DNA from: a virus
Length of the DNA stretch: 64,000 bases
Direction: 5' to 3' (one strand)
IMG/VR virus record: IMGVR_UViG_3300045012_000181
Span: 61,607 to 125,606 of that record
The translations under genes and the position numbers were made by a program. The notes below the pieces were generated by a model, which was not told the DNA's origin, did no database searches, and worked only from the letters and a program-made list of their open reading frames with translations. Positions 12,628-31,547 of the stretch are shown here, in pieces (the first letter of the stretch is position 1; each line of letters opens with the position of its first letter).

Positions 12628-12788
12628 GTGTTGGGCTCTTGAATAGGTTAGTTGTGGAGCTCACCCGGGCCCGTTTGATTACAGTGCCGCTTATTATTTG
12701 CAGTAATTGTGCTATTACCACGGCCTCCTGGTTGCATCCCCGGTGCGGTGGCGCGTTGTGTCCTAGGTGTTCAATTTGGAAATGGTAG
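12573..12788 (+). CDS. Small membrane protein with zinc-ribbon tail (71 aa)
   Basis: One hydrophobic segment (residues 9-25) followed by a Cys-rich tail with C43-S-N-C46, C58, and C63-P-R-C66. An in-frame TAA three codons upstream fixes the ATG as the earliest start. It overlaps the previous frame by 55 bases. Function unknown. Confidence 0.5.
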   Translation: MLAHVLEYAAGLTLALYIGVGLLNRLVVELTRARLITVPLIICSNCAITTASWLHPRCGGALCPRCSIWKW

Positions 12789-12803
12789 AGGGTTAGTAAA
12801 ATT
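12788..12803 (+). promoter_or_regulatory. Ribosome binding site with AUU start
   Basis: GAGGG (12788-12792), eight bases, then ATT at 12801. The next in-frame start-like codon, TTG 12864, has no Shine-Dalgarno and would remove 21 conserved-looking residues. Confidence 0.6.
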
Positions 12804-14702
12804 TCAGACCAATTCATCCAAGTTCCACCGCAATCAACGGGCCTCAAAATAGACTGCACCGAGTTGGTCGTCGGGGCTAACACCGTGGAACGCGAGCGGC
12901 AAAACATCGCCGACCCCTCGAATGCCGCAGGTCTGGCCGGAGTCGTGAATTCCGCGCCCGGTGGCAGCACTTATGGCCTCGTAACATGGAACCAGCCCAG
13001 TGGTACACAGGCCGTTTCCGGTAGTATAACGGCCACACAGGCCACGGGTTCAAATTTGCACGTTGTTGTGGACACCGCGCCCACTACCACGGTTACGGGA
13101 ACGGTTGGGGCCACGCAGAGCACGAGCCCTTGGGTAGACAACCTTACACAGGTTGCGGGCACGGCCCTAGGCGCCACGGCTGTCGTGAATTATGGTTCAA
13201 CACCGGCTGCGGTTGTGGTGCCGGCTGTAAATGCCTTCGTCACGAATACCGTTCCGGTTACAGGGACCTTTTTTCAGGGCACGCAACCCGTCTCTGGAAC
13301 CGTAACCGCCAACCAAGGCACGGCCAACAGTTTGGCCAATGCCTGGCCCACGGAACTTACGGATGGCACCAATGGTCCAGCTGCCGTTAAGGCCGCCAGT
13401 ACTGCGGCCGTTGTTGCAGACAAGGCCCTTGTAGTAGCCGTTAGCCCCAATAATAGCGTGGCCGTAACGGGCACATTTTTTCAAGGCACCCAGCCCGTTA
13501 GTGGTACGGTCACGGCCAATCAGGGCACGGCCAATACCGCAGCCAATAGTTGGCAAGTTGAAGTCACAGACGGCACCAACGTTCTGGGCGTCTCAGCGCA
13601 TCCACTTCGCGTGGACCCCACGGGCACCACCACGCAGCCCGTTTCAGGCACAGTTACAGTAGGCAATGCCAGTCTGGCCGTTACACAAAGTACAAGTCCG
13701 TGGGTTGATAATATCACCCAGGTGGCCAGTACTGCACTGGGCGTACCGCAGACCTTTGGGACGGCGCCGACGGGCGTAGTAATCGGGACCAGTTCGGACA
13801 TGTATATCGCGGGTACGAGGGCCCGCTCAAATCAAACCACGACGGCGGCCGGTGTTCAGGATGTAAACCTTGTGGGCACACTGGGCGTAACCAACTCCGT
13901 GACTAATGGCTCCTTCATGGCCATCACGGACAACACCACCAAGGCCGGCGTCATAGCCGCTACGACGGCCCTCAAGACCGATTTGAGTTCCGTGGCTGGT
14001 ACGGCCACCAGTACGGCCGCTTCGGGCGTGCAAAAAGTCGGCATCACTGGAAACGCCAACGCCACTTTAGATAGCACAATCGGGGCGGCCACAGCACCGA
14101 CGAATGCCTTGGCCACGTCAGCGGTATATCAGACCACGGTTCCGGCCCTTACGGCTGGACAAGCTGTAGCTGTACAAGCCGACTCCACTGGTAGCACCTT
14201 CGTTAACATAGAAGGGCGTCGAGCAACTTATGCCTCGGGAAATTCCGGTCTAACATCGGTAGCGGGCGTTGGTGCTTTTCTTCAGGGTTCCTCAACCAAA
14301 ACAGTTCGAATTGTCAAGGTGGGTCTTAACTATATTGCCACGAGCACCACGCTGGCCTATCATACCATAAAGTTAAATCGTTACAGTGCACTATCAGGTG
14401 GCACAAACGTAGCGGACACCATTACAAAATTGGACACAAACAACGGTACGGCCACCGCAGTTTGCGACCATGTAACGGCCGTAAACACAACTCAAACTCT
14501 AGTGGGGACTGCAGTTTTAGACCAAGGTCTTGCACTTTCCACGACGGTAGTGGCCACTTGTCCAGTCTACAGTAAGGAATGGACGTTCGGCGGCTTGCCA
14601 GCCCAGGCTTTTGTTCTGAGGGGAACCACGGATTTTCTTGGAGTTTTGTTTGATGCCGCAACCCTAACCTATGGGTATTGGATAGAATGGACGGAAGAGT
14701 AA
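12801..14702 (+). CDS. Large repeat-containing fibre-like protein (633 aa), probable ATT start
   Basis: Reading from ATT 12801 gives the N-terminus (I/M)SDQFIQVPPQSTGLKIDC, which reads like the normal beginning of phage proteins of this type; the first conventional candidate, TTG 12864, is internal. The first 280 residues contain two diverged copies of TGTFFQGTQPVSGTVTANQG and two of QSTSPWVDN-x-TQVA. The C-terminal 180 residues are a separate beta domain. Presumably a tail or capsid fibre. Confidence 0.7.
   Translation: MSDQFIQVPPQSTGLKIDCTELVVGANTVERERQNIADPSNAAGLAGVVNSAPGGSTYGLVTWNQPSGTQAVSGSITATQATGSNLHVVVDTAPTTTVTGTVGATQSTSPWVDNLTQVAGTALGATAVVNYGSTPAAVVVPAVNAFVTNTVPVTGTFFQGTQPVSGTVTANQGTANSLANAWPTELTDGTNGPAAVKAASTAAVVADKALVVAVSPNNSVAVTGTFFQGTQPVSGTVTANQGTANTAANSWQVEVTDGTNVLGVSAHPLRVDPTGTTTQPVSGTVTVGNASLAVTQSTSPWVDNITQVASTALGVPQTFGTAPTGVVIGTSSDMYIAGTRARSNQTTTAAGVQDVNLVGTLGVTNSVTNGSFMAITDNTTKAGVIAATTALKTDLSSVAGTATSTAASGVQKVGITGNANATLDSTIGAATAPTNALATSAVYQTTVPALTAGQAVAVQADSTGSTFVNIEGRRATYASGNSGLTSVAGVGAFLQGSSTKTVRIVKVGLNYIATSTTLAYHTIKLNRYSALSGGTNVADTITKLDTNNGTATAVCDHVTAVNTTQTLVGTAVLDQGLALSTTVVATCPVYSKEWTFGGLPAQAFVLRGTTDFLGVLFDAATLTYGYWIEWTEE
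13255..13540 (+). repeat. Diverged internal coding repeats
   Basis: Two copies of a roughly 75-base unit at about 13255-13330 and 13463-13540 encode the same F-F-Q-G-T-Q-P-V-S-G-T-V-T segment with many silent differences. A second repeat pair at about 13111-13170 and 13681-13741 encodes S-T-S-P-W-V-D-N. Silent divergence points to old duplication kept by protein-level selection. Confidence 0.7.
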
Positions 14703-14703
14703 A

Positions 14704-15006
14704 ATGGCTCTTAAAACCTATATAGGCTTTCTGGGACAGGTGAAGGGTGACGGTGTTTCTACCACTTGCTCTGTTAATTTGCTTACAGACCCTGTTGGCT
14801 ATCAGTTGCCCAGCAGTGGTGTGGCGCTGCCTTTTACAATAACAGCCACAATCTTGCCTACAACTATTACCGATCCATTCTCCTCGGATGGACAAACACC
14901 CACCATGGCTTTTGGGCTCACGCACAATATTGTAAATGTAACCTGGCCCTTAGCACCTGGTAATGGGGCCTTTTTGAGCTTTGGTGGAAATCTCTATTTT
15001 TCTTAG
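14704..15006 (+). CDS. Hypothetical protein, paralogue A (100 aa)
   Basis: Resembles the next protein: both begin with a K-T-x-I/F-x segment, then G-x-V-K/Q-G-D-x-V-S-T, and end in a Thr-Pro-rich strand and aromatic tail. The pair looks like a tandem duplication. Short beta-rich virion proteins. Confidence 0.6.
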   Translation: MALKTYIGFLGQVKGDGVSTTCSVNLLTDPVGYQLPSSGVALPFTITATILPTTITDPFSSDGQTPTMAFGLTHNIVNVTWPLAPGNGAFLSFGGNLYFS

Positions 15007-15017
15007 AAGGAGTTTTA

Positions 15018-15302
15018 GTGGCGATTAAAACGGAATTTAACATTACTGGGAATGTGCAAGGAGACAATGTCTCAACGGTGTTTGTTCTCGACCTAGAGCG
15101 GGATCCATACACTATTGCGATAGGTACTCCAGTTATTAACTGGTTCGCCGTGGATGGAAAGTCCACCAAGGCATCGGGAATTGTAGGGTTAGATGGAAAT
15201 TCTTACAGTCTGCTGGATACTAAGGTTACTATAACCTTTCCTACTGCACCCGCCAATACGCCTACTAGTGCTGGTTTTACCTTTTTCTTACTTTTTGATT
15301 AA
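15018..15302 (+). CDS. Hypothetical protein, paralogue B (94 aa), GTG start
   Basis: GTG at 15018 follows AGAAGGAGTTTTA, a strong ribosome binding site. Shares G-N-V-Q-G-D-N-V-S-T-V-F with the G-Q-V-K-G-D-G-V-S-T-T-C of the preceding protein. The stop overlaps nothing; the homing endonuclease begins ten bases later. Confidence 0.6.
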   Translation: MAIKTEFNITGNVQGDNVSTVFVLDLERDPYTIAIGTPVINWFAVDGKSTKASGIVGLDGNSYSLLDTKVTITFPTAPANTPTSAGFTFFLLFD

Positions 15303-15312
15303 AGGGGGTCCT

Positions 15313-15735
15313 TTGGCCACACTGGAATGGGCTGCAGGCTTTATAGACGGCGAGGGATGTGTGGATATTTGGACTACCAAGAAAGGACAGCAATGTGTTC
15401 GCCTGTCCGTTACTAATACACACTTACCAGCCCTGAAAGAACTACAAAGCCTTTTTGGCGGCGGACGAATTTGGTTAAGAAAAGGTTCAAAATATCCCAA
15501 TGCGTTGCCATGTTACCAAATTACATGGCATGGTAAAAAAGGTGTGGAACCGATTTTACAAGCTATTCTTCTGTATTCAGTTGTCAAACGAGAACAGATT
15601 AAGTTCGTACTGGACTCTTGGATGCCACGAATCAAGAAATCTGGTACGGGCAAGTTAACAGAAGAAGAAATTAAAATGCGTGGCGAACTAAAAGAGATGC
15701 TCTCCAAAATGAAGCATCAAGCCTATACACAATAA
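15313..15735 (+). CDS. LAGLIDADG homing endonuclease (140 aa)
   Basis: TTG at 15313 follows AAAGGGGG and gives MATLEWAAGFIDGEGCV, with the single LAGLIDADG motif at residues 7-16 (A-A-G-F-I-D-G-E-G-C), the second Asp/Glu being catalytic. One motif per chain means it should act as a homodimer. A free-standing selfish gene placed between two small virion genes, immediately before the portal group. Lys-rich and lower in GC than its neighbours, in keeping with separate origin. Confidence 0.9.
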   Translation: MATLEWAAGFIDGEGCVDIWTTKKGQQCVRLSVTNTHLPALKELQSLFGGGRIWLRKGSKYPNALPCYQITWHGKKGVEPILQAILLYSVVKREQIKFVLDSWMPRIKKSGTGKLTEEEIKMRGELKEMLSKMKHQAYTQ

Positions 15736-15750
15736 GGGAGAACTTCAATC
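15736..15750 (+). promoter_or_regulatory. Ribosome binding site with AUC start
   Basis: GGGAG at 15736-15740, seven bases, then ATC at 15748. The first conventional codon in frame, GTG 15766, is 25 bases from the Shine-Dalgarno, too far for normal initiation. Confidence 0.65.
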
Positions 15751-16101
15751 GCCACATTTGCAGCAGTGTTTTCACCCAGCTCGGCCTCAGGCGGAGTGGA
15801 ATCTGTAACTAAACAGACAATCGCACCAGCGGCCTCCGGTGCAGAAATTGTCTTGGGTACCAACCAACTATTCGCCATCTGTGGAATTGCCGTTGGAACG
15901 CCCGGCGCCACTACGGGCGCCAATATCAATCTGGAGTTTGGTCCGCCGGGCCTTGGAGCCGCCTCAGCTGCTGACATGGGCCTTCCAGTCAATCAAGTCT
16001 TCACATTCGATATGAGTGACGAGTTTAGGAGTATTAGGGTCTTCAACAACTGCACCACAACCAACGTAGATGTATACGTAATGAAGCTCAAGCGCACTTA
16101 G
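15748..16101 (+). CDS. Small virion-type protein (117 aa), probable ATC start
   Basis: Reading from ATC gives (I/M)ATFAAVFSPSSASGG, a typical compact N-terminus for a phage particle protein. The body is a beta-sandwich-like sequence ending in a Lys-rich strand (YVMKLKRT). It directly precedes the portal gene, so a head-completion or decoration role is possible. No family recognised. Confidence 0.65.
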   Translation: MATFAAVFSPSSASGGVESVTKQTIAPAASGAEIVLGTNQLFAICGIAVGTPGATTGANINLEFGPPGLGAASAADMGLPVNQVFTFDMSDEFRSIRVFNNCTTTNVDVYVMKLKRT

Positions 16102-16126
16102 CAGTACAGTGAGGGAACTTTAGAAA

Positions 16127-18526
16127 ATGGCTAATGCACTTCCAACGATGGCCTCATCGGACCGCAATCCCCGCAGGGCGCTAGGTACACACTACACCAC
16201 GCCCGTAGGTGGGATGCTCAACGATAATGCCAACCTAGATGATGATGTATCGGGAGCTGTTGATAATGCCGAACGAGCACGCCGAAATAAAAAGCTCCAG
16301 TTTGTCTCGGCTGAACTCAAAAGAATGAGGTATTTTAGGCGCCAATATGATCTACGGAGGGCGCACTACTATCGCCAGTACTTAGGCCAGCGGGACGATA
16401 AATACTATCCCGACAATCTAACCAAGCGTTCTAATACCTTTGTTCCATACCCGTTCTCCACGGTAGAAAATATTGTGGCGCGTACCATGGACGCCTTCTT
16501 CAGTATGGAGGATTGGTTCGAGACCAAGCCCAAACCGCCCTATAGCCAAGACGATCAGGCCGATCAGATGCAAGTGGCCCTACAGGATAAACTTCACAAG
16601 GCCGATTTAATCAGCGCCGTCGAACAGTTGGTTCGAAATTTGGTCATCTATGGTCAAAACGCCGTTAAGGTCGATTGGAATTTTGGCTATACCACCGTCG
16701 TAAGCAAAGAACCCATTTATTATCAGCAGCCCGTAATGCAACCCCTCGTGGACCCCGCCACGGGACAGCCCGCTATAGGGCCGGATGGTCAGCCCATGCA
16801 ACAGCCCGTGGTAGACCCCCAAACGGGCCAGCCGGCCATGCAACCCGTTATGGGACCCGACGGTCAGCCCATCATTCAGGGCTACAGGGCCAAGCAAGAG
16901 GAAGTGCCCAAGGCCTGCCCGCGCTTTACGGTCATAGACGTTTATGATTATCTATACGATCCGGATGGCGCCTATGAGGCCCATCTGACCGAGCGAACAT
17001 GGCGTGAGCTCAAGGAAGAGCAAACAGCCAGCCTGCAGGCCATGGACAATGATCCCAATAGGCAACCGGCCTACTTTCAAGAAGGCCTGGATACTCTGGG
17101 TCAGCGTCTAAGTAACGAGGAAAACGCCGACGAGATTGTTATAAGGCTGGCTGAGTTTTGGAACAAGAACGATAACACCTGGACCATCATGACCTTTGGT
17201 GAGGATCCCGAGGGAATCTCTTTCAAGGACCTACGGGCCAGCTTTAGGGCCACGGCCTATAGTCCCTACAAGCGCCGGATTTACGGGGGCGAGACCATCC
17301 TTTTGTTCGATGGTGACAACCCCTTCTTCCACAAGCGCTCGCCCATTCTGCACACGGATTTCATTAAATTACCCAACGAGGCCTTTGGCCTAGGCGCCAT
17401 CGAAATCATTTCGGATTTGTCTGAGAGCCTAAACCGCTTCGTCAACATGATTGCCGACAACTGGAATATTGGTATCAACCACCGATATGCCTATGATATC
17501 AATGCCGAAATCGACCACGAAAGCCTGCAGCGTTTTAACATACCTGGGGGTTTTGTTGGAACCGTTGGGGACCCTTCTAAGGTTATTTTCCCTTTGCCGC
17601 AGTTTACACCGGCCGCTGGGGATTATGCCATCCTAGATGTCTATAGGCCCATGATTGAGCAGGCCTCTGGAATAAGCGACTTTTATAGTAAGGGCGTTGG
17701 AAGCGGTGGTGGTAACAAGACCGCCACGGGCATCCAGCAAATCATTGGCGAGAGCAACTACCGTCTGAAGATGTTCATTCGCAATCTGGAAGTGGACATT
17801 TTGCAGCCCCTGTTGGAGATGTGCGCCAGCATGATTCAGCAGTTCGTGGATAGACCGTGGGATGCCGCCAACCCCAAGGCCGACGTGCCGGGCCAACCGC
17901 CCACAGTAACAGTGGACCCCAAGAGTCTAATTGGCACCTACCAGTTCAACATCGTTGCGGCTAACTATGCCACTTCCAAGATTGTTCGACAGCGTAATCT
18001 GATGGCCTTGGCCCAGATTATGAAAGATAATCCCTATATCAATGTGCAAGTTGCCACGAGGGAAATGCTCAAGACATTTGAGATTAAGCACATTGACCAA
18101 ATCATGAAGACCGATCAGCAAGTGCAGCAAGAGCAGCAACAGAACATGCAACAGCAGCTCATGATGCAGCAGATGCAACACCAGCAGGAGATGGAAAAAA
18201 TTCAAGCCAAAGGTCAAGCCGATGCCCTGGTTGCTGCTAACAGTCCCAGCCCCATTGCTCCTAGTGGTGAGTCTATTGGTGGTCAGCACGAGTCTAACGA
18301 TAATGCTGGCAAGTCTGCTGACAAGAAGGCTGAGAAATCTGCCAAACCGGGAGGTCCTCCAGGTGCTAAAGGCGCTCGAAGCCCAAAGACGGGCCGACCC
18401 ACCAAGTCCCAGCACGAGGGCCGAATTCCGGGATCTAATATAGATACTATGGCCAAAAAGCTAGGCGGGGCGGGCGGCACGAGTGCTCTGGGCCTCAGTC
18501 AGCTGGGCAACATGCCCCCGGAGTAA
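16127..18526 (+). CDS. Portal (head-tail connector) protein (799 aa)
   Basis: Ring-forming portal through which DNA is packaged and ejected. Residues 1-190 contain the N-terminal helices with YFRRQYDLRRAHYYRQYLGQR and the N-T-F-V-P-Y-P-F-S-T-V-E-N core. Residues about 195-250 are an unusual insertion of Gly/Pro/Gln repeats (DPATGQPA, GPDGQP, DPQTGQPA, GPDGQP). The stem and clip region follow, then a Gln-rich coiled coil (about 660-700) and a disordered basic tail. The length and plan fit podovirus portals. It is followed by scaffold-like and capsid genes as expected. Confidence 0.85.
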   Translation: MANALPTMASSDRNPRRALGTHYTTPVGGMLNDNANLDDDVSGAVDNAERARRNKKLQFVSAELKRMRYFRRQYDLRRAHYYRQYLGQRDDKYYPDNLTKRSNTFVPYPFSTVENIVARTMDAFFSMEDWFETKPKPPYSQDDQADQMQVALQDKLHKADLISAVEQLVRNLVIYGQNAVKVDWNFGYTTVVSKEPIYYQQPVMQPLVDPATGQPAIGPDGQPMQQPVVDPQTGQPAMQPVMGPDGQPIIQGYRAKQEEVPKACPRFTVIDVYDYLYDPDGAYEAHLTERTWRELKEEQTASLQAMDNDPNRQPAYFQEGLDTLGQRLSNEENADEIVIRLAEFWNKNDNTWTIMTFGEDPEGISFKDLRASFRATAYSPYKRRIYGGETILLFDGDNPFFHKRSPILHTDFIKLPNEAFGLGAIEIISDLSESLNRFVNMIADNWNIGINHRYAYDINAEIDHESLQRFNIPGGFVGTVGDPSKVIFPLPQFTPAAGDYAILDVYRPMIEQASGISDFYSKGVGSGGGNKTATGIQQIIGESNYRLKMFIRNLEVDILQPLLEMCASMIQQFVDRPWDAANPKADVPGQPPTVTVDPKSLIGTYQFNIVAANYATSKIVRQRNLMALAQIMKDNPYINVQVATREMLKTFEIKHIDQIMKTDQQVQQEQQQNMQQQLMMQQMQHQQEMEKIQAKGQADALVAANSPSPIAPSGESIGGQHESNDNAGKSADKKAEKSAKPGGPPGAKGARSPKTGRPTKSQHEGRIPGSNIDTMAKKLGGAGGTSALGLSQLGNMPPE

Positions 18527-18529
18527 ACG

Positions 18530-18685
18530 ATGGTCAAGTGTGAAATCTGTGAGGCCCAGCCTTCAAGCTACATCGACCCCGTGGACTTCCAGCAAGTCTG
18601 CCGGGATTGTTTCTTTAACGTCGTGTTCCACATGCTAGACCCTGAAATTTCGGAGGAAGACCTTGCCCAGCAAAACCAAAACTAA
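18530..18685 (+). CDS. Small two-knuckle zinc protein (51 aa)
   Basis: ATG three bases after the portal stop. C4-E-I-C7 and C24-R-D-C27 form a simple zinc ribbon. It overlaps the next gene by 23 bases. A class of tiny Cys-rich proteins recurs through this genome. Function unknown. Confidence 0.6.
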   Translation: MVKCEICEAQPSSYIDPVDFQQVCRDCFFNVVFHMLDPEISEEDLAQQNQN

Positions 18686-19040
18686 TGCCTTGTTATTTGT
18701 GGAAGTAGACAAAGAGGATGTCAGACCCCTTGGTACTGGCAAGGAACTTAGCGGTGCTATTCTCTCTCTTGGAGGACAGTTGGGCTTTCAAGAACTACTC
18801 CGGCGCTTCAGAGTCACTAGGGCGTTACTTAGAAGCCGGCTGGAACAGCCCACCGAAGACGAAAACCGCCACCAACTACGTGCATTGATAGAGGCCTATG
18901 GCTTTGTGGAGCGGCAGCTACGGCAGGAAAGCGGCCGACCAACCGAAGAGGCCCGCGAGGCCTATCAGGAGGAGCGGCAGGAGTTTGAAAGACTGGCGAA
19001 GTACGTGGAAATTATAGGCAGAAGTGGGGAAGCCAACTAG
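18663..19040 (+). CDS. Hypothetical helical protein (125 aa), TTG start
   Basis: TTG at 18663 is preceded by GGAGGAAGACC, a strong ribosome binding site inside the previous gene. Highly charged (Arg/Glu) and helical, probably with coiled coils (residues 60-120). Between portal and scaffold, so a head-assembly accessory role is possible. Confidence 0.6.
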   Translation: MPSKTKTNALLFVEVDKEDVRPLGTGKELSGAILSLGGQLGFQELLRRFRVTRALLRSRLEQPTEDENRHQLRALIEAYGFVERQLRQESGRPTEEAREAYQEERQEFERLAKYVEIIGRSGEAN

Positions 19041-19256
19041 ATGGCCATAGGCGGTCCCGTACGCTACTACAGCCTTAAGAGCGGTTGTTGCCATGGCCTT
19101 AACATAACCCTGTGCGATGCCCATTTGGCGGCCCGAATTAATTCCGGGTGGAAGCTTGGTCAGGATAGAGGGCCTGATAACCAAGTTTGCCACGATTGTC
19201 CAAAAAGTTTACCCGCTACCACAAGTAGCGGAAATCCAAATACGCCACAAGCGTAG
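19041..19256 (+). CDS. Small Cys-rich protein (71 aa)
   Basis: Follows the previous stop with no gap. Cys16, Cys17, Cys25, Cys50 and Cys53 suggest a zinc site. No family recognised. Confidence 0.5.
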   Translation: MAIGGPVRYYSLKSGCCHGLNITLCDAHLAARINSGWKLGQDRGPDNQVCHDCPKSLPATTSSGNPNTPQA

Positions 19257-19264
19257 GAGAATAA

Positions 19265-20296: not shown

Positions 20297-20324
20297 GTCG
20301 GTAATTCCTTAAAGGAGAATTACT

Positions 20325-21290
20325 TTGGCAGACGTTATTACAGTAACTGCGGGGAGTGCGGGACAAGCAGGTTCTACAGCAGCCGAATTGATTACCTACA
20401 TGAGTGCGCGGCTCCTCGAAGTTGCGGAGCTTAACACCATCCTGGATCAGTTCGGTGACAAACACCCGTTGCCGGCGAATTCGTCCAAAACGATTCGCTT
20501 CACGAGGGAAGAGAAGCTGTCTGTTGCTGCTACTCCTACTCAGTTGACAGAAGGTGTGCCGCCCGATGCTTCGGCGCTCACTATTAACCAGTTTGAAGCA
20601 ATCACCGAACAGTACGGCGCTCTCGTTCGTTTGTCGGACCTTGCAGAATTGACCGCGAGACATAATCTCGTCGAACGTACAATTTACGTTCTTGGCTTGC
20701 AGGCCGCAGAAACCTACGATCAGCTTATCTATAACGTACTGAATTCCGGTACCACGGTCTATCGGCCCAACAACAAGAGTTCGGATACAGCCCTTGTGGG
20801 CTCGGATGTCGTGACTGCTGTGGACCTCGTTGAGGTTGAGGCCACACTTAACGGCAACGGCGCCCGTCCATACGAGAGCGGTTATTACGCCTTCGTTACG
20901 AGCCCCCAGCCCTATGCCGCATTGCTCAAGGACCCGGATTTTAAGGCCGCCGCTCAGTTTCGAGCGCCCGAGAAAATCTGGCGTGGTGAAGTCGGTGAGC
21001 TTTATGGCTTCCGAGTCATTCGGAGCAATTCTCCGGCCTTCGCCGCAACCTCGCAGGTCACTGCGGGTCAGTCCAGCTTGGTTTACACCAGTCTGGCCAT
21101 TGGGCGATTTGCCTACCAGATCTCGGACCTCCAGAACCTCCGTGTCTACGTTGTGGCTCCCGGTGGACAGGCCGACCCCTTGCAGCAAAGCCGCAAGATT
21201 GGTTGGAAGTTCGCTTTCAAGTCGCTCATAACCAACCAGAACTGGGTAATCGTGGTTCGCAGTTCGGGTCTCAATAGCAAAACCAACTAA
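20325..21290 (+). CDS. Major capsid protein, N4gp56 family (321 aa), TTG start
   Basis: Shell protein with the HK97-type fold. The signature of the N4gp56 family is clear: the N-terminal Y-M-S-x-R-L-L-E helix, D-Q-F-G-D-K-H-P-L-P with N-S-S-K-T-I-R-F, L-T-E-G-V-P-P-D, then Q-Y-G-A-L-V-R-L-S-D near residues 104-113 and G-L-Q-A-A-E-T-Y-D. It starts at TTG 20325 after AAAGGAGAATTACT, unusual for the most highly expressed phage protein. Length matches the family. Confidence 0.92.
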   Translation: MADVITVTAGSAGQAGSTAAELITYMSARLLEVAELNTILDQFGDKHPLPANSSKTIRFTREEKLSVAATPTQLTEGVPPDASALTINQFEAITEQYGALVRLSDLAELTARHNLVERTIYVLGLQAAETYDQLIYNVLNSGTTVYRPNNKSSDTALVGSDVVTAVDLVEVEATLNGNGARPYESGYYAFVTSPQPYAALLKDPDFKAAAQFRAPEKIWRGEVGELYGFRVIRSNSPAFAATSQVTAGQSSLVYTSLAIGRFAYQISDLQNLRVYVVAPGGQADPLQQSRKIGWKFAFKSLITNQNWVIVVRSSGLNSKTN

Positions 21291-21300
21291 CAATTTTCTG

Positions 21301-21331
21301 GCTAGGGGCCTCTTCATGGAGGTCCCTGTGG
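21301..21331 (+). terminator. Strong hairpin after the capsid gene
   Basis: AGGGGCCTC (21304-21312) pairs with GAGGTCCCT (21319-21327) over a six-base loop, nine pairs including one G-U, extended by GGC/GCC outside. No U-run follows, so it may be an RNA-stability or partial attenuation element that sets capsid expression above downstream genes. Confidence 0.45.
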
Positions 21332-21347
21332 CCACAAAGGAAAAAGA

Positions 21348-21692: not shown

Positions 21693-21711
21693 GAAAGAAG
21701 GGTGACCAAAA

Positions 21712-22504: not shown

Positions 22505-22505
22505 T

Positions 22506-22832: not shown

Positions 22833-22833
22833 G

Positions 22834-23232: not shown

Positions 23233-23245
23233 GGCCTAAAAACAT

Positions 23246-23836: not shown

Positions 23837-23839
23837 TCT

Positions 23840-24271: not shown

Positions 24272-24961
24272 ATGGCCCTTACGGTTTCCAGTATCGCCTC
24301 GGACAGTTCAATCGACATCCGTCAGGTTCTTGTGGCCACGGACACCAAGTTTATCGGTTGGATTGATCGCATACACAAGGACTGTATGCACAGTTCGGTT
24401 TACAGCCCGTTTATTGTGGCCCGACAGAGTCTTATAACGATTGCCGGGCAATCCAACTATACACTGGCACCTACAGCGGGTGTTACGGGAGCCGGACCGG
24501 GCATCCGTCGAATTTTGGGCGTTTTCGACAGCACTCGGAATCGTATACTCTTCCCGATTGAACGTGCAACATCACCTATTTCGCAGGTTGATAAACAAGA
24601 GCCTAGTCCGGGCCAGCAGGGCAGTCCGCAAATAGAGTTTGGTCAACCCTTGGCTTCGCCTATCTCCCTACAAGCCGGACAGCCGGGTTATTTCAGATAC
24701 TTCCCTAATGCCGCCCTGAATCCACCGGCCATCTCGCTTATTCCCACACCGGCCGCACCACTCACCATCAGCGTCACCTATGAACTACAGGTCGTTACAC
24801 TTGTGAATCCCACCGATACGCTCTTGGTACCTGAAGATGGCCGGGATATGGTTGTGGCGGGTGTGAACTATTTGGCCAATATTTTCCTTAAGCGCATGGA
24901 CGAGGCCCAGATTTGGGCCCAGATTTACTCGGCTCTCAAAAAAGGAGAAAGTCTTGTTTAG
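24272..24961 (+). CDS. Head-tail adaptor-like protein A (229 aa)
   Basis: The C-terminal part (L-L-V-P-E-D-G-R-D-M-V-V-A-G-V-N-Y, then aromatic-rich helices) parallels I-L-L-I-P-S-D-Y-F-D-V-L-V-A-G-V-N-Y in the protein at 31538, so the two are distant paralogues. The pattern of an N-terminal helical domain plus a beta region fits phage adaptor or tail tubular A proteins. Abuts the holin stop. Confidence 0.6.
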   Translation: MALTVSSIASDSSIDIRQVLVATDTKFIGWIDRIHKDCMHSSVYSPFIVARQSLITIAGQSNYTLAPTAGVTGAGPGIRRILGVFDSTRNRILFPIERATSPISQVDKQEPSPGQQGSPQIEFGQPLASPISLQAGQPGYFRYFPNAALNPPAISLIPTPAAPLTISVTYELQVVTLVNPTDTLLVPEDGRDMVVAGVNYLANIFLKRMDEAQIWAQIYSALKKGESLV

Positions 24962-25397
24962 GCGGCTTATTGTTTTGGTGGGAGCTTTATTGCTTAGTCT
25001 ACCCGCACAGGGCGGCCCCCGGGATTGGCTAAAGCACAATTGGAAACCGCTCCTGATAACGGGAATCAGTTTAGGAAGTTCTTTGGCCATGACACATGAG
25101 GCCCATACCTGCCGAGTGCAGTTTGGGCCGGCGCCCTGTGCCGGCGGTTACGGCGAATTCGGGGCCCGGGAGGGTCTTAGGTTCGGCACCTCCGCGCTTA
25201 TGAGTGGTCTCTCGTGGTACGGCTACAAGCAAGGCTACAAGGATTGGTTCTTGCCTGCTGTGGGATTCGCTACTTATAACGGCATATCGGCATATCGTCA
25301 AACCCTTGTGGGTTGTCCCTCGGGTGAGCACTTCCTATATGGCACCAAATTCACCTGTGTAGACAATTATAGCGAGAACAGCTGGAGCAGCCATTAA
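24954..25397 (+). CDS. Exported small protein (147 aa), TTG start
   Basis: TTG at 24954 after AAAGGAGAAAGTC, overlapping the previous gene by eight bases. Residues 1-21 form a signal peptide (FRRLIVLVGALLLSLPAQG). Four Cys residues (about 52, 61, 126 and 137) could form disulfides in the periplasm. Two moderately hydrophobic stretches follow the leader. It may be a lysis accessory or superinfection protein; no family recognised. Confidence 0.6.
   Translation: MFRRLIVLVGALLLSLPAQGGPRDWLKHNWKPLLITGISLGSSLAMTHEAHTCRVQFGPAPCAGGYGEFGAREGLRFGTSALMSGLSWYGYKQGYKDWFLPAVGFATYNGISAYRQTLVGCPSGEHFLYGTKFTCVDNYSENSWSSH
25384..25395 (+). promoter_or_regulatory. Ribosome binding site with AUU start overlapping a stop codon
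   Basis: GGAG (25384-25387), five bases, then ATT at 25393, whose last T begins the TAA stop of the previous gene (ATTAA). The alignment of the following protein with its paralogue starts exactly here. Confidence 0.7.
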
Positions 25398-28300
25398 ACA
25401 CGTCTTCGACACCGTAGCCAATCAGGCCAACGTATTGGTGGCCAATGCCACTGTTACTGTTTACGTGACGGGTACACTTACGCTTGCGCCCTTGTTTGTG
25501 GACGATGGCATCACGCCCGGAAGTAACCCCGTCTTTACCAATAACCTGGGTGTCTTTAACTTCTACGTGGCCGACGGGCGTTATGACATTCAGGTCTCCG
25601 GCCCTAACATTAGTACCTTCGTGCAGAAGAATGTGGAAATTTCGGATGTTACCGAGGCCGGACCGGGAACGGGCGATTTGCCTTGGCAAACGGATCTTAT
25701 CGATTTTGTTAATCAAAGCGCCGTGCCGCCGGTTCCGCCAGCTGGAACCGTGGACCTCTACACACTGGCCAGCAATCGGCATATTTACATTCAGGACAGC
25801 ACCGGTACTATAACAGACCTCACGGCCACTGGAGGTGGTGGCGGTGTAAGTAGTTTGAATGGTTTGACCGGTGCGCTTAATATTGTAGGCGGAAGCGGGA
25901 TTGCCATTTCGACCGGTGGCAGCAGTGTCCAAGTGTCCGCCACCGGCGGGGGTGGAGGGGGCTCACCAGCGGGTCCTGTTGGAACCGTTCAGGTCACAAA
26001 CAGTTCACTCAATGGCTTCGCGGCCAGCTCGATTAATGATAATGGCACCGTTGTCAGTATCGCGGAAGAAGTAGAATTTAGGGGCCCCGACCCCTATACA
26101 GACGTTCGTCAATTTGGTGTGCGCGCCACTGCTTCAAATACCGTTCCCGCCATCCCTGGTATTACGGCCACAATTAACGCGGGTTCGTCTTTGGCCAGTC
26201 TCTCCTCAGCCAGTAGTTTTCAAAACGGCGATGGCGTGGTTATCTACGGGGCGGGTTCGGCCCTTGTAATCACCCCGCCCGCTGGGACGGCTATTACACC
26301 CAGTTTGGCCGCCGCAGGAACCGGTACGGGATTGGTTGTACCGGCAAATACCGGTGCAACAACGTATAACTACCAAATCGTGGCGCGAGATGTGGTTGGG
26401 GGCCTAACGGCGGCCTCTGCTGTGGCCTCAATAGGCAATGGCATACCCTTGGGAAAGAATTCCATTGGCATCACGGGCTTTAGTCGGAGCGGCACCACGG
26501 TTACTGTGAATACCTCCAGCGCGCATAGCCTGGTAGCCGGGGCTATGGTTTATATCAGCGGCTCCAGCGACAATTTGAACTTTGGCGGTTGGTATGTTGT
26601 GGGTACCGTTCCGGATGCCTTGCATTTTACCTATATTACGGGAATGGATGTCGCCAACGGCGCCAGTACTTCGGGTACGGGCGGCACGGCTGTATGGTTT
26701 AGTTGCAATCACGTAACTTGGACGCCCGTGCCTGGGGCCTTCACCTATTATATTTACGGGCGCACCGGAGGCAGCCTTACGCTACTGGGGGCCAGCAGGC
26801 CCCAAAATCCCGGACAAGGCCTCATTGACGCCACTTGGGATGACTTTGGCTCGCCCATGATGGACGGCATTACGCAGCCCTTTTTTGTGCCGAGTACGCC
26901 TCCAGTAAGCACCCTTAACGATCCCTTGGTGGCTATTATAGTTTCTGGAGCTGGAACGCCTACATTGACACTGAGTGCAACTGCGAGTACGGCCGTAGCC
27001 GGGGCTCCGATTTTGTTTGATAATACCCCCAATATTCAAACAGCCGCGGCCCGTACAGTACAAAGTGGCTTGCTTTACTTTCCTGGAGGGACGTACGTTA
27101 CAAATTCTTTCCTTACAATACCCGGTGGTGTGGCCGTTTCGTTGGCCGGAGCCAGCCTAGTGCTTAATGACACCATGCAAATAGGTAATGGTGATAGATT
27201 CTATGGCAATCTGGGGGCACAAGGCAACAGCGGTCCACAGTTTAGTTGGCCTCAGGGCGGTATCATAATCGCTGCCAAGGCCAACCCCGGTGTCTGGGCT
27301 ATTAATGGCGGGGGCGTAATTTTAGACGGTATAAACCTCCAAGGCTCTGCAAACGGACAGCTTTTAATGGCCTTGGATGGCGGGGGTGGGAGCAGCCAGA
27401 ATCAGTTCAAAAACACCAATTTCAGTGACGGTGGCAGTGGGGACTATATGGGTGTCAACCTATTGGCCCGAGGGGGTTTTTGGAATAAGTTTGATACCGT
27501 CACATTCGCCACTGGTCCGGGCCAGCAGGGCGGGGGCTTCACGGGTTCTACTTGCACACCAGCAGCCCTCTTTAATAGTGGCAGCACGACGTTTAGAAAC
27601 ATGTCCGTACAGGATCGCGGGATATTCTTTATTCCGGGAGCTGCCGGCGCCAACGTCGAATTTACTGGTACTTCCAGGGCTCAGGGCATCATCACGCCTT
27701 TCTTTATGACCTATGGTCTTAATGCCGGGGGCTATTTCAGTTTTTCCGATGTTGAGTTGGATACAACTTTTCAGGCCCTATTTGCTAACCTTTCCCCCAA
27801 CACCACGGGTTTGTCATTCCCAACTGTGGCCATTGTGCCAGGTATAAACGGTGGAACTGGAGGGGGATTTGGTACGCTTACAGGCAAGCCCATTGGGAGC
27901 AGCCCAGGTACAGGCCTTGTACTAGGACCCGTATCGGGTCAAAATGTTAACCTGGTCTATGGCTTTAATTTTAGTAACAATCCCGCAAATGTCACTGGTA
28001 CAGGGGCTTTTCAGTATCCCGTATCGGTCTCAGGCGCACCCGGTGCGATTGTAAGTGCCGGTGGAAATGTTGGTATAGGCAATCTTAGCTATATTGTAAC
28101 CTATATTGATATCAACGGGCGCGAAAGCACGGCCAGTGCTTTCACTAACGTTAGCACGACACCCGGCAATCAAACGGTTACAATTACTCCCCCACCGGCT
28201 CCACCGGGAGCGGTGGCCTGGAGGCCTTGGCGTTGTAATCCCAATGGCCTAAACTGTAACGAAGTAAACCTGGGTCCATGCCATCAGGCCTCGTTGACCT

Positions 28301-28647
28301 TTGCGCAAAACTATGTGGATAGCTTTTCTTTCGTGTGCGATAGTCTTAATCCGCCCGTTGTAAACTACGCCGGGGCCTCGTCCATTTCACAATTTGGCGT
28401 CACGGGAACGAACTTTAACGTTGTGGGCGGCGGTTTCTTTAGTCAAATGACCGGGACTTTCACAGGCAACCGAACCATAATGCTACCAGATAGCAATGCC
28501 ATTCTAGTGGGTCTTAGCACGTTTGCCACCCTAAATCCGGCCATTCCACTCAGTCTGTGCGCGGATTGCACCATTGCAAATCCCTGTGCCGGTGGCGGTA
28601 CGGGCGCGTTGGCCAAGCGCCTAGGCGGAACGTGGGTGTGCAATTGA
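25393..28647 (+). CDS. Tail fibre/spike with pectate-lyase-like fold, paralogue 1 (1084 aa), probable ATT start
   Basis: From ATT the protein begins (I/M)KHVFDTVANQANVLVANA, matching position for position the MFHYYDTVANQANVLIPNA of the fibre at 28738; the next start-like codon, TTG 25435, would delete 14 conserved residues. The shared N-terminal ~95 residues (to G-D-L-P-W-Q-T-D) are probably the virion anchor. Residues about 220-290 and 540-760 have the D-V-R-Q-F-G-V-R and G-G-T-Y features of right-handed beta-helix spikes, with a Gly-rich hinge near 145-185. It likely recognises or cleaves a host polysaccharide. Confidence 0.75.
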   Translation: MKHVFDTVANQANVLVANATVTVYVTGTLTLAPLFVDDGITPGSNPVFTNNLGVFNFYVADGRYDIQVSGPNISTFVQKNVEISDVTEAGPGTGDLPWQTDLIDFVNQSAVPPVPPAGTVDLYTLASNRHIYIQDSTGTITDLTATGGGGGVSSLNGLTGALNIVGGSGIAISTGGSSVQVSATGGGGGGSPAGPVGTVQVTNSSLNGFAASSINDNGTVVSIAEEVEFRGPDPYTDVRQFGVRATASNTVPAIPGITATINAGSSLASLSSASSFQNGDGVVIYGAGSALVITPPAGTAITPSLAAAGTGTGLVVPANTGATTYNYQIVARDVVGGLTAASAVASIGNGIPLGKNSIGITGFSRSGTTVTVNTSSAHSLVAGAMVYISGSSDNLNFGGWYVVGTVPDALHFTYITGMDVANGASTSGTGGTAVWFSCNHVTWTPVPGAFTYYIYGRTGGSLTLLGASRPQNPGQGLIDATWDDFGSPMMDGITQPFFVPSTPPVSTLNDPLVAIIVSGAGTPTLTLSATASTAVAGAPILFDNTPNIQTAAARTVQSGLLYFPGGTYVTNSFLTIPGGVAVSLAGASLVLNDTMQIGNGDRFYGNLGAQGNSGPQFSWPQGGIIIAAKANPGVWAINGGGVILDGINLQGSANGQLLMALDGGGGSSQNQFKNTNFSDGGSGDYMGVNLLARGGFWNKFDTVTFATGPGQQGGGFTGSTCTPAALFNSGSTTFRNMSVQDRGIFFIPGAAGANVEFTGTSRAQGIITPFFMTYGLNAGGYFSFSDVELDTTFQALFANLSPNTTGLSFPTVAIVPGINGGTGGGFGTLTGKPIGSSPGTGLVLGPVSGQNVNLVYGFNFSNNPANVTGTGAFQYPVSVSGAPGAIVSAGGNVGIGNLSYIVTYIDINGRESTASAFTNVSTTPGNQTVTITPPPAPPGAVAWRPWRCNPNGLNCNEVNLGPCHQASLTFAQNYVDSFSFVCDSLNPPVVNYAGASSISQFGVTGTNFNVVGGGFFSQMTGTFTGNRTIMLPDSNAILVGLSTFATLNPAIPLSLCADCTIANPCAGGGTGALAKRLGGTWVCN

Positions 28648-28736
28648 GACAGGTTAAACATCCTTATAAGCAAAAATGGGACCAAGCCCGTCGTTCTGAA
28701 GAAAACGAAAATTTTAGCGCAGAAACCTTAAACTAA
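28644..28736 (+). CDS. Possible 30-residue coupled protein
   Basis: TTG overlaps the TGA of the fibre gene (TTGA) and the frame stops one base before the TTG of the next fibre. The product is charged (KHPYKQKWDQARRSEENE). No Shine-Dalgarno is visible, so translation would rely on reinitiation. It may be only a spacer that delivers ribosomes to the next gene. Confidence 0.35.
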   Translation: MRQVKHPYKQKWDQARRSEENENFSAETLN

Positions 28737-28737
28737 C

Positions 28738-31314
28738 TTGTTTCATTACTACGACACTGTCGCCAATCAAGCCAACGTCCTAATACCCAATGCCACTGTA
28801 ACTATCTACGTGGCTGGTACTCTGACGCTGGCCCCATTGTTCATTGACGATGGTCTGACGGCCGGTCCTAATCCCGTCTTCACAAACAATTTGGGGGTCT
28901 TTAATTTCTTCATTGCGGACGGGCGTTATGATATCGCCGTCACGGGCCCAAATATTTCCTCGTTCACTCAGCAGAACGTCGAAATCTCTGATGTAACACA
29001 GGCCGGTCCTGGAACGGGAGATTTGCCCTGGCAAACCGATAACTTCGAGGTGGCCGAATTGGCCTTGGCCAATGTACCCGGAACGCCCCCTTCGGGCTTC
29101 ATGAGCGTCTATAGCAAACTAAGCCCCAAGCACCTGTTTGTGAAGGATGATACTGGGCTGGAGACGGATTTATTTACGGCTGTGGGCTCGGGTGCCCAAC
29201 CCCCGCTTAACAGCCTACAATATGATAGCGCCGGCAGCCTAGCGGGCTCGCAGTTCATTTACAACCCCACTGATAATAGCGATGTAACCTGTGCGGCGCC
29301 CTGTGTGAGCCTTACGGTTTCGGGCCGTAATTCTGGAATTCTGCTGGAAAGCCCTAGTGGGAATAATTTTGTAAATATTGCTGCCGAGGACACCGAAGAC
29401 GGGGCCAATCTGGTTGTACAGAGCAGCGTCACAAGCCCGGCCTTCATAACCACCGGGCAGGCAAGCTTCTCCTATATTGGAGGTAACACCCCCGGGGGTT
29501 CTTGTTTCGATACCACGGGCTCCTTGGGCTCTTCGAATCCCTGTGCTCAGGGCTACGTGTCCTACCCCTCGGATATCGGCACGGAAACCCTTAATGGACA
29601 GGATTTACTGGGCTTTCTATCTTCGCCACTGCTCAGCAAGGGCCCTGGTCAAACCATTGGTACGTTGGCCAACTTCGTCGTCAACAAACCCGTGGCGCAG
29701 ACGGCCCTGGGGGCCTATGTACCGGCCGTCGAAAATACCACTAATAGTTATGGCCTGCTGGTGCAGGATCAGGGTGGTTTTAGTACTGTCGAGACTGCAG
29801 CGGTTAAGATACTTCCACAAACCCTGCCCAGTGCTGGAACGCTCTACGGTATCGAAGCCCTACCAGGCTCGGGCATCAACCTTCTCAGCGACGGCATAGA
29901 TTTAAGCAATGAGCCCTTCCCCCCGCTGCCGCCCTTGGGGCGTATACGAGTCTACAGCAATAGCACAACAGGCAATCTTAGTTGTGTGACCTCGACGGGC
30001 GCCAATTGCCTCCCAGTGCCCAGCGGTGGGACCGGTACCGTAACCAGTGTGGGCCTCAATATGCCCCCGCAGTTTCTGGTGAGCAATTCACCCGTGACTA
30101 CGGCCGGCGTCCTGACGGCCACGCTTACAAATGAAGTTCCTAATACGGTATTTGCCGGACCGGGCCTCAATACCATAGGAGGTATTTTTGACGGCGTGGT
30201 GGCTGGAGTTTCGTCAGCCGTGGCCACAAGTATATCCCTGACAAACACGCCCACTACGGCGCACGACTGGGCCTTTTTCCTCTCCATGGCGGATAACAAT
30301 ATCGGCGAGAGTTCGGCCACTACGGTAACCGGAACGGGAACTTGGAATCCGGTCTTTCTTAATAATAACCAGGGCGTGCTCTATAATCAGATTCTGAGCT
30401 CTGCGGCGCCCCTGACGGCTACGGCTACCTTGCCTACAGCCACCAACTGGGCCGCGCAAATGTTTTTCCTGGCCCTGCCACCGGCCGTTACGCCTACAAT
30501 TGTACAGCAGCATGCCGTCACAGGCGCCGTTACACCCGGTAGCAGTGTAACCTTTCTATCGCCCACCACACCAGGTAATTCCATTCTTGTGGTGTTACTG
30601 GGTGCGCCTAGTAACCCCGCTAATACCATCAGCAGTCTTGTAACAGACTCCCAAGGCAATGCCTACACGCCCATCGCCGTGGAACAAAACACCTTTGGGG
30701 CCGGTGAGGTGGTGCAGTCCTGGCTAAGTGCCGGTACGCATGGCGGCACATCGGCAACAATCACTTGGGGTAAGGGCTCCGGCAATGGCGTTAGTGGCTC
30801 GTTGCTCATAATGGAGTTGAACAATCTGGCCATACCCACCGGTCAGCCTTCGTTTCGCTTCCTACAGAAGGGCGATGTTAGCAGTGCGGGCCTGTTGCCC
30901 ATCCAGAGTTTTAGTAACGCCGTTTTGCCCATCAATGTAAACGTGCTGGCCAATACTCTAACCACCGTGGCCACACAGAATATTACAATGCCCCCTGTGG
31001 GGGGTCCGTGGCGGGCCTTTGTTAGCTATTCCATGTCTGTTAGTACGGGTAGTAGCGGGGTGGGCTATGCCTTTTGGGTTAATGATGGCGGCACGAGTTT
31101 TGCCGGTGTGGTGACGGGTCAGAGCAATGGCTCTTCAGGCGGGCTGACATCGGCCTCTTATGGCGGCTATAGCACAGTCACCTATAGTAATGGCGCCAAT
31201 ATTACTTTTACTTTGGCCACCCAAGGCGATCATGGCTATGTGGTTCAGGCCGTGCCTTTTATCGGTAGTGGCCCCAATAGTAGTTTCCAAATTGTCATAG
31301 TGAGCAGCAACTGA
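28738..31314 (+). CDS. Tail fibre, paralogue 2 (858 aa), TTG start
   Basis: Shares its first ~95 residues with the preceding fibre, then diverges completely. Contains a segment near residues 585-640 like the protein at 9847, and a C-terminal domain of about 150 residues with a Gly/Ser-rich beta pattern reminiscent of C1q/TNF-like trimer heads. A shared anchor with different binding regions suggests dual receptor specificity. No ribosome binding site precedes the TTG, so translation probably depends on upstream ribosomes. Confidence 0.7.
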   Translation: MFHYYDTVANQANVLIPNATVTIYVAGTLTLAPLFIDDGLTAGPNPVFTNNLGVFNFFIADGRYDIAVTGPNISSFTQQNVEISDVTQAGPGTGDLPWQTDNFEVAELALANVPGTPPSGFMSVYSKLSPKHLFVKDDTGLETDLFTAVGSGAQPPLNSLQYDSAGSLAGSQFIYNPTDNSDVTCAAPCVSLTVSGRNSGILLESPSGNNFVNIAAEDTEDGANLVVQSSVTSPAFITTGQASFSYIGGNTPGGSCFDTTGSLGSSNPCAQGYVSYPSDIGTETLNGQDLLGFLSSPLLSKGPGQTIGTLANFVVNKPVAQTALGAYVPAVENTTNSYGLLVQDQGGFSTVETAAVKILPQTLPSAGTLYGIEALPGSGINLLSDGIDLSNEPFPPLPPLGRIRVYSNSTTGNLSCVTSTGANCLPVPSGGTGTVTSVGLNMPPQFLVSNSPVTTAGVLTATLTNEVPNTVFAGPGLNTIGGIFDGVVAGVSSAVATSISLTNTPTTAHDWAFFLSMADNNIGESSATTVTGTGTWNPVFLNNNQGVLYNQILSSAAPLTATATLPTATNWAAQMFFLALPPAVTPTIVQQHAVTGAVTPGSSVTFLSPTTPGNSILVVLLGAPSNPANTISSLVTDSQGNAYTPIAVEQNTFGAGEVVQSWLSAGTHGGTSATITWGKGSGNGVSGSLLIMELNNLAIPTGQPSFRFLQKGDVSSAGLLPIQSFSNAVLPINVNVLANTLTTVATQNITMPPVGGPWRAFVSYSMSVSTGSSGVGYAFWVNDGGTSFAGVVTGQSNGSSGGLTSASYGGYSTVTYSNGANITFTLATQGDHGYVVQAVPFIGSGPNSSFQIVIVSSN

Positions 31315-31547
31315 TGATTAAGGTGCAAACTACGCCCTTGGTGGTATGCGATGTGTGCCGAATTTTAGAGAGCGATTTGACGCTCAAATACTGCGACTAT
31401 TGCGGTCTTTGCGATTCGTGGATTTGCAAACAAGACCAAGAGGCCTGGTGGCGCCGAACCAAGGCCTTCTGGAAGCGTCGAGTGGAACCCAATTTCAGGG
31501 GCGATCCCAACTATATTAAGTCCGAAGGAGAACCGCCATCCCCATAA
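31314..31547 (+). CDS. Small double zinc-ribbon protein (77 aa)
   Basis: C12-D-V-C15, C27-D-Y-C30, C33 and C38 give six candidate ligands. The C-terminal half is Trp/Arg-rich (WWRRTKAFWKRR), suggesting nucleic acid or membrane contact. ATG overlaps the fibre stop by one base. Function unknown. Confidence 0.6.
   Translation: MIKVQTTPLVVCDVCRILESDLTLKYCDYCGLCDSWICKQDQEAWWRRTKAFWKRRVEPNFRGDPNYIKSEGEPPSP
31527..31540 (+). promoter_or_regulatory. Ribosome binding site with AUC start
   Basis: GGAG (31527-31530) within GAAGGAGAA, seven bases, then ATC at 31538, overlapping the previous gene by ten bases. The first ATG in frame (31574) has no ribosome binding site. Confidence 0.65.

What the first reader, a model, noticed from the sequence alone, without database searches (positions are those of the whole stretch)
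12788..31540. Repeated use of AUU/AUC as start codons in one phage
Besides 25393, three more genes (ATT 12801, ATC 15748, ATC 31538) have a good Shine-Dalgarno 7-8 bases before an AUY codon and natural N-termini from that codon (SDQFIQVPP, ATFAAVFSPS, PIIVTTGTS), while the nearest ATG/GTG/TTG downstream lacks a binding site. AUU/AUC are normally rejected by IF3; infC itself is the textbook exception. Four cases clustered in virion genes suggest selection, for example low or IF3-sensitive expression, or a relaxed host initiation system.
Basis: partly seen in the sequence, partly recalled or inferred. Interest (0 to 1): 0.8.

Follow-up and report, generated by a model that had tools for sequence, protein, structure and literature searches.

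The report
Phage genes starting at AUU/AUC codons
A soil phage appears to begin at least four of its virion-region genes at AUU or AUC, codons that bacteria normally reject as starts, and relatives carry ordinary start codons at the same positions, so these look like real, recently switched weak start codons that standard gene finders would miss.

Summary
At 12801 (ATT), 15748 (ATC), 25393 (ATT) and 31538 (ATC) an AUY codon lies 5-8 bases after a Shine-Dalgarno (SD) core, and no ATG/GTG/TTG lies upstream in frame. Homologs show that these are start positions. The 15748 codon aligns with ATG/GTG/TTG in 18 of 18 relatives whose alignment reaches residue 1. 12801 aligns with ATG in 2 of 2. 25393 aligns with ATG or TTG in four relatives and with the TTG of a paralog. 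31538 is also ATC, with its own SD, in a phage 73% identical there. A fifth case is the portal gene of the closest relative L002 (ATC, where the window has ATG and another relative TTG). Scattered assembly error cannot readily produce this. The phage is SU10/phiEco32-like, host unknown; the habit is confined to a small clade. Best reading: SD-directed fMet initiation at AUY, weak and probably IF3-sensitive, helped by nearby upstream stop codons. Selection for low expression is not shown: SDs are not stronger than elsewhere, and start codons turn over between relatives. AUY starts are a known kind; several in one phage's virion genes is an unusual variant.

The parts
12787..12792 (+). SD core AGAGGG of the ATT-12801 gene (overlaps the stop of ORF 12573-12788)
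   Evidence: sequence; duplex energy -6.3
12801..14702 (+). gene starting at ATT 12801, 633 aa, repeat-rich, no Pfam/PHROG hit
   Evidence: I-SDQFIQVPPQSTGLKID aligns with M-AFNFIQVPPQSTGLKVD (L046:6410, ATG) and M-SNGYIQVPPDSTG (L066:5867, ATG); no family hit
15313..15735 (+). LAGLIDADG endonuclease ORF just upstream of the ATC-15748 gene; TTG 15313 taken as likely start, first in-frame canonical codon 15268
   Evidence: PF00961 E=3.4e-5 on 15268-15735; start chosen by eye
15734..15740 (+). SD core AAGGGAG of the ATC-15748 gene
   Evidence: -8.4
15748..16101 (+). gene starting at ATC 15748, 117 aa, directly upstream of portal
   Evidence: same codon is ATG in 15, GTG in 2, TTG in 1 of 18 relatives whose alignment reaches residue 1; second codon GCN in all 18
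16127..18526 (+). portal protein, ATG start here, TTG in L004, ATC in L002
   Evidence: phrog_1216 2.2e-25, phrog_332 3.2e-31; starts:
20325..21290 (+). major capsid-like gene, TTG start with AAAGGAG
   Evidence: PF25209 3.5e-7; SD -8.7
25384..25387 (+). SD core GGAG of the ATT-25393 gene
   Evidence: -5.6
25393..28647 (+). gene starting at ATT 25393 (ATTAA overlaps the stop of 24954-25397), 1084 aa, tail-fibre-like by inference
   Evidence: N-terminus matches paralog 28738 (TTG) and relatives L006/L008 (ATG), L012/L033 (TTG); L009 (ATT) ambiguous
28738..31314 (+). paralog with the same N-terminus (DTVANQANV), TTG start, no SD
31314..31547 (+). small CxxC (zinc-ribbon-like, by eye) gene overlapping the ATC-31538 start by 10 bases
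   Evidence: homologs in L005, L004/L018, L058, L002
31525..31531 (+). SD core AAGGAGA of the ATC-31538 gene
   Evidence: -8.8
31538..32761 (+). head-tail adaptor (SU10 adaptor family) starting at ATC 31538
   Evidence: PF24175 2.6e-7; ATC with its own SD (AAGGAGA) also in L018:10001, 73% aa identity; PIIV aligns with MPIIV of L008 and MPIIF of L012

Best explanation
These are genuine near-cognate (AUU/AUC) translation starts in a small clade of SU10/phiEco32-like soil podophages. SHOWN by sequence: each AUY codon occupies the start position of its gene, most were ordinary AUG/GUG/UUG starts in relatives, and each follows an SD. INFERRED: the 30S subunit is placed on AUY by the SD; initiator fMet-tRNA pairs with A and U and tolerates a third-position mismatch that IF3 normally penalises, so initiation works but at reduced rate. 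Four of the five distinct cases have an upstream ORF ending within about 12 bases of the codon or overlapping it, and the fifth (L002 portal) has one only if an 11-codon mini-ORF is translated, so terminating ribosomes can help. The products with a family match are the portal (in L002) and the head-tail adaptor, taken from general knowledge to be low-copy parts of the particle; a weak start is tolerable there, perhaps useful for stoichiometry. Likelihoods: AUY are the true starts, about 0.92; SD-plus-coupling weak initiation, about 0.6; maintained by selection for low expression rather than tolerated drift, about 0.35.
For: Homolog alignment of start positions: 15748 -> 15 ATG, 2 GTG, 1 TTG of 18 that reach residue 1 (21 of 56 contigs had hits; L033 and L069 did not reach residue 1, L071 aligned from residue 6 with an in-frame ATG four codons on; L069 is ATG when the L004 protein is the query). 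12801 -> ATG in 2 of 2 that reach it (17 contigs with hits). 25393 -> ATG 2, TTG 2, ATT 1 (ambiguous) of 5 that reach it (10 with hits), and TTG in the in-window paralog. 31538 -> ATC with AAGGAGA-like SD in L004/L018 and L003/L020. L002 portal starts ATC after GGTGGAGG where the window has ATG and L004 TTG. Downstream canonical codons have poor SDs and would delete conserved N-termini. No in-frame canonical codon between the upstream stop and any of the four codons. Literature: IF3 represses noncanonical starts, infC AUU/AUC (PMC5472188, passages); AUU/AUA starts lower yield in S. aureus (PMC13009471, passages).
Against: No protein or ribosome data. SDs of the AUY genes are not stronger than those of the other genes (median -6.4 of 125; p = 0.19), so no compensation is seen. 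Three of the four window codons rest on one assembled record. L003 and L004 may share reads (4 mismatches in 17,180 bases). The L009 ATT has an in-frame TTG overlapping the previous stop and may not be a start. Outside G000, L002 and L003/L004 the wide tallies found no excess of AUY. 25393 has the weakest SD and the shortest spacing.
Confidence: 0.7

Rival explanations
1. The true starts are the downstream canonical codons (TTG 12864, GTG 15766, TTG/GTG 25435/25438, ATG 31574); the upstream stretch is leader and the AUY/SD match is coincidence.
For: ATG 31574 is matched by an in-frame ATG near the same place in L018. Gene finders limited to ATG/GTG/TTG would pick these codons.
Against: Conserved N-terminal residues upstream of those codons are shared with relatives and a paralog, starting exactly at the AUY codon. 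SD energies at the downstream codons run from +1.9 to -3.3.
Confidence: 0.06
2. Sequencing or assembly errors turned ATG into ATC/ATT.
For: Relatives have ATG at three of the four positions. One gene elsewhere in the record appears frameshifted in a T run, so the record may not be perfect.
Against: Four hits on third bases of start codons with all four genes otherwise open; ATC of 31538 recurs in a 73%-identical phage in two assemblies; a separate ATC in L002.
Confidence: 0.04
3. AUY is simply part of a relaxed start-codon repertoire: the host (or infected cell) initiates loosely, so start codons drift among AUG, GUG, UUG, AUU and AUC without a regulatory role.
For: Turnover at the same gene: portal ATG/TTG/ATC, 15748 gene ATC/ATG/GTG/TTG. 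About 31% of the roughly assigned canonical starts in the record are GTG or TTG (39 of 125). SDs not stronger.
Against: No AUA, CUG or other near-cognate case was found with comparable support. No host data. More distant relatives keep ATG/GTG/TTG.
Confidence: 0.45
4. AUY starts are a selected stoichiometry or timing device: IF3-sensitive weak initiation keeps low-copy virion proteins low, or delays them until the IF3:ribosome ratio falls.
For: AUY genes lie in the virion region (4 of 55 against 0 of 74, p = 0.031, biased detection); those with a family match are portal or adaptor, and the capsid gene uses TTG with a strong SD. Precedents for IF3-repressed starts in bacteria.
Against: Only one of the codons is clearly conserved between phages; SD strength is ordinary; three AUY genes have no family match.
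Confidence: 0.35

Closest known systems
infC (IF3) AUU/AUC start, IF3 autoregulation
   Same: AUU/AUC start with an SD; infC of the Terriglobia-related genomes shows the same arrangement in the 6 of 20 loci that I could read (GGAG-like SD, then ATC)
   Different: infC regulates itself and keeps a noncanonical start; here the genes are phage virion-region genes and most of the codons are not conserved
S. aureus cvfC1 (AUU) and ccpN (AUA), PMC13009471 (passages)
   Same: Near-cognate AUU/AUA starts lowering yield
   Different: Those have extended SDs and are conserved; here SDs are ordinary
Streptomyces sigR GTC start, PMC5472188 (passages)
   Same: Noncanonical start in a translationally coupled gene pair, repressed by IF3
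   Different: GTC, tested experimentally, one bacterial gene
Odd starts reported in phages: RsoM1USA CTG/GTC (PMC6389784, passages); EspM4VN Val/Leu starts incl. GTG gene 115 (PMC7283392, passages)
   Same: Non-AUG starts reported in phages
   Different: RsoM1USA starts are annotation only in the passages seen; EspM4VN gene 115 is canonical GTG; neither reports AUU/AUC in the passages seen
SU10/phiEco32-like podoviruses
   Same: SU10 adaptor, portal, phiEco32-like COOH-NH2 ligase hits
   Different: 125.6-kb record from metagenomic data; no match for the 846-aa protein among 50,697 phage records

Membership tests
near-cognate (AUU/AUC/AUA) initiated genes | start position occupied by AUU/AUC/AUA | tested here: met
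   homolog-aligned starts
near-cognate (AUU/AUC/AUA) initiated genes | SD at usable spacing and no better canonical start | tested here: met
near-cognate (AUU/AUC/AUA) initiated genes | initiation at that codon seen in protein or ribosome data | not testable with these tools
   sequence only
IF3-repressed regulatory starts (infC/sigR type) | repression by IF3 | not testable with these tools
   no culture; host unknown
IF3-repressed regulatory starts (infC/sigR type) | noncanonical codon conserved in orthologs | tested here: inconclusive
   31538 ATC conserved in L004/L018; 15748 and 12801 not; 25393 only in ambiguous L009
extended-SD near-cognate starts (S. aureus type) | SD stronger than genome norm | tested here: not met
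   p = 0.19, n = 4
SU10/phiEco32-like podovirus | SU10 adaptor and podovirus portal families | tested here: met
   PF24175, phrog_1216 and phrog_332
SU10/phiEco32-like podovirus | elongated-head podovirus particle (recalled) | not testable with these tools
   no particle data

The most novel reading that the evidence does not exclude
In this phage clade and its host, AUU/AUC are regular members of the start-codon set, acquired repeatedly (at least five genes across three phages), and act as a translational throttle on low-copy virion parts whose strength follows IF3 during infection. Gene finders that allow only ATG/GTG/TTG hide such starts, so they may be common in other phages.
Probability: 0.15. 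Interest if true: 0.72.

Novelty: new variant of a known kind. Interest (0 to 1): 0.52.

Why it matters
Switches from AUG to AUU are very rare in annotated bacteria: 1 of 61,358 ancestral AUG starts in PMC5622118 (passages), though annotation bias lowers that figure. At least five such genes in three related phages, among them a portal and an adaptor, show that near-cognate starts can persist in virion genes, that gene callers limited to ATG/GTG/TTG would truncate or lose them, and that a testable link between host IF3 and phage assembly may exist.

Tried and rejected
Wide codon tallies on 57 contigs: no excess of ATY among noncanonical codons after SDs; N-terminal homology limits are too fuzzy, and this argues against a family-wide habit. 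Automated vote for start position: misregistered by gaps (many noncanonical calls lie one or a few codons off an ATG); it recovered only 15748 (10 of 11 votes) and was not used. It suggested an AAG start in the gene at record positions 54,776-55,252, which is an ordinary ATG gene. All-pairs listing of the close contigs was swamped by antisense ORFs.

SD compensation: not seen. Phage-encoded IF3: none. Pfam scan of 124 of 182 gene calls found no initiation factor, though it found a peptide deformylase. Phage tRNA: none. ATA 22470 as a fifth case in the window: no homologs to test it. L009 ATT: left as ambiguous. A group I intron hiding the true 5' exon: no Rfam hit in the record or in 5 relatives. 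More close relatives: queries 33409-35949 and 7222-9846 found none; the L002 portal and the L018 adaptor brought no new close relative; the 15748 protein found none by the pattern scan. PMC4648390 was read in passages and set aside because it concerns eukaryotic cells. In one search the endonuclease query was translated out of frame and its result was not used.

Literature: searches; the listings and the passages read showed no report of AUU/AUC starts in phages. This is only as wide as those searches. The E. coli 64-codon study (Hecht 2017) is not held; seen only as a reference in PMC11497404 (passages).
Full report
The window is bases 61,607-125,606 of a 125,606-base virus record. The record has no tRNA gene and no Rfam match. 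The portal, an SU10-type adaptor and three phiEco32-like COOH-NH2 ligases place it near SU10/phiEco32-like podophages. The relatives are metagenomic viral contigs; that they come from soil is my reading of the sample types, not a tool result. The host is unknown; the only lead is a 46%-identical portal on a 3,264-base contig of a Terriglobia MAG.

The observation. At ATT 12801, ATC 15748, ATT 25393 and ATC 31538 the reading frame opens shortly upstream with no ATG/GTG/TTG before the AUY codon, and an SD precedes it: AGAGGG, AAGGGAG, GGAG and AAGGAGA, with energies -6.3, -8.4, -5.6 and -8.8. The next canonical codons have energies +0.5, +1.9, -2.5 and -3.3. By chance 0.37 such SD-plus-ATY pairs would be expected in the four leader stretches together.

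Homologs decide it. The 15748 protein has hits in 21 of 56 searched contigs. In 18 the alignment reaches residue 1, and there the codon is ATG (15), GTG (2) or TTG (1), always followed by an alanine codon GCN as in the window. The three others: L033 and L069 did not reach residue 1 (L069 does, with ATG, when the L004 protein is the query), and L071 aligned only from residue 6, with an in-frame ATG four codons on. The 12801 protein has hits in 17 contigs, most of them in its repeat-rich body; the two that reach the N-terminus, L046 and L066, have ATG exactly there, followed by the shared motif IQVPPxSTG. The 25393 protein reaches its N-terminus in 5 of 10 contigs: ATG in L006 and L008, TTG in L012 and L033, ATT in L009. 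In addition, the in-window paralog at 28738 shares DTVANQANV and starts at TTG. L009 is ambiguous: an in-frame TTG upstream overlaps the previous gene's stop (read). For 31538 the phage of L004/L018 (73% identity) has ATC too, with its own AAGGAGA; PIIV matches the starts MPIIV of L008 and MPIIF of L012, and L019 begins MPNIL. In more distant relatives this N-terminus varies in length and does not align.

A further case was found on the way. The portal of L002, the closest relative by this protein (83% identity over its full length), starts ATC-GCT-AAC-GCA after GGTGGAGG, where the window reads ATG-GCT-AAT-GCA and L004 reads TTG-GCT-AAC-GCA. So at least five genes across three related phages carry AUY starts. 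All are AUU or AUC; no AUA, CUG or other near-cognate start was found with comparable support.

Assembly error. Three of the window's codons rest on this one record. Against error: all four genes are otherwise open, the changes hit only third bases of start codons, ATC at 31538 is shared with another phage present in two assemblies (4 mismatches in 17,180 bases, so perhaps not independent), and L002 is separate. One frameshifted ORF elsewhere in the record shows that it may not be perfect.

Extent. Among gene calls with a solid codon score, 4 of 55 plus-strand genes of the virion region and 0 of 74 others are AUY (Fisher p = 0.031). Detection leans on relatives, and most of the relatives found carry only this region, so the contrast is weak evidence. 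Roughly assigned canonical starts in the record are 86 ATG, 19 GTG and 20 TTG (up to four of these belong to the AUY genes). Wide tallies over 57 contigs gave no excess of AUY: the habit belongs to a small clade. For scale, in PMC5622118 (passages) 1 of 61,358 ancestral AUG starts switched to AUU, with the caution that annotation hides such cases.

Mechanism. Shown: start position, SD, and neighbouring stops. The upstream ORF stop lies 12 bases before the codon (12801, 15748) or overlaps it by 5 (25393) or 10 bases (31538); in L004/L018 the overlap is 13 bases (read), and in L002 an 11-codon mini-ORF, if translated, ends just after the ATC (read). Inferred: SD-placed 30S subunits or terminating ribosomes initiate with fMet-tRNA at AUY at a reduced rate; IF3 would repress this, as for infC and sigR (PMC5472188, passages). 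IF3 also limits re-initiation without an SD (PMC2268962, passages). Compensation by stronger SDs was tested and not seen (p = 0.19). The genes with a family match (adaptor, and portal in L002) are taken from general knowledge as low-copy virion parts; the capsid gene uses TTG with a strong SD. This fits a throttle but equally fits tolerated drift, because the same genes carry ATG, GTG, TTG or ATC in different phages.

Context of two cases. A small CxxC gene precedes the ATC adaptor gene in this phage and in L004/L018, and a shorter copy precedes the ATC portal gene in L002; copies also occur in L005 (before a portal whose start was not resolved) and in L058. In this phage a LAGLIDADG endonuclease gene sits between the 15748 gene and the gene before it. 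Whether insertion of neighbours reshaped the start sites is open.

Host side. A Terriglobia genome, weakly linked to these phages, has IF3, and 21 of 21 genomes searched around it have IF3. In the 6 of 20 infC loci that I could read, the gene seems to start at ATC after a GGAG-like SD. That is the usual infC arrangement and says nothing about relaxed initiation.

Verdict. The claim that selection drives it is not shown. AUY initiation is a known kind of event; several cases in one phage's virion genes, including an adaptor and (in a relative) a portal, form an unusual variant worth an experiment.

Noticed in passing
L014:3862-4404 (- strand), record positions 3862-4404: Metallophosphoesterase-like ORF whose N-terminus (VQVYLITDTHL, after AAAGGAG and GTG) lies in another frame; the join falls in a T run (CTTTAA), so either a one-base indel or a frameshift. 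A PF00149 hit exists among the scanned proteins.
   Followed up: partly
window 31314-31547; L018, L002, L005, L058: Small CxxC (zinc-ribbon-like) gene that sits before the adaptor gene in two phages and before the portal gene in L002 and L005; it seems to change place.
   Followed up: partly
L002:6698-7709; L009:5289-6147; L048:13647-13962; L073:14954-15815: A gene (capsid-like in L002 by its match to L005) appears interrupted in several relatives, with intron-like junctions by eye; no Rfam intron family reached its threshold.
   Followed up: partly
L014-L016 (minus-strand genes of the record): Pfam hits to peptide deformylase, RtcB, RNA ligase, a HisRS-like protein, NAPRTase, an ice-binding-like protein and three phiEco32-like COOH-NH2 ligases; the individual genes were not located.
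   Followed up: no
window 39940-49509: A single 3189-aa ORF at the end of the plus-strand virion operon.
   Followed up: no
L009:8018: ATT at the homolog-aligned start with CAGGAG upstream, but also an in-frame TTG overlapping the previous stop; possible independent AUU start.
   Followed up: partly
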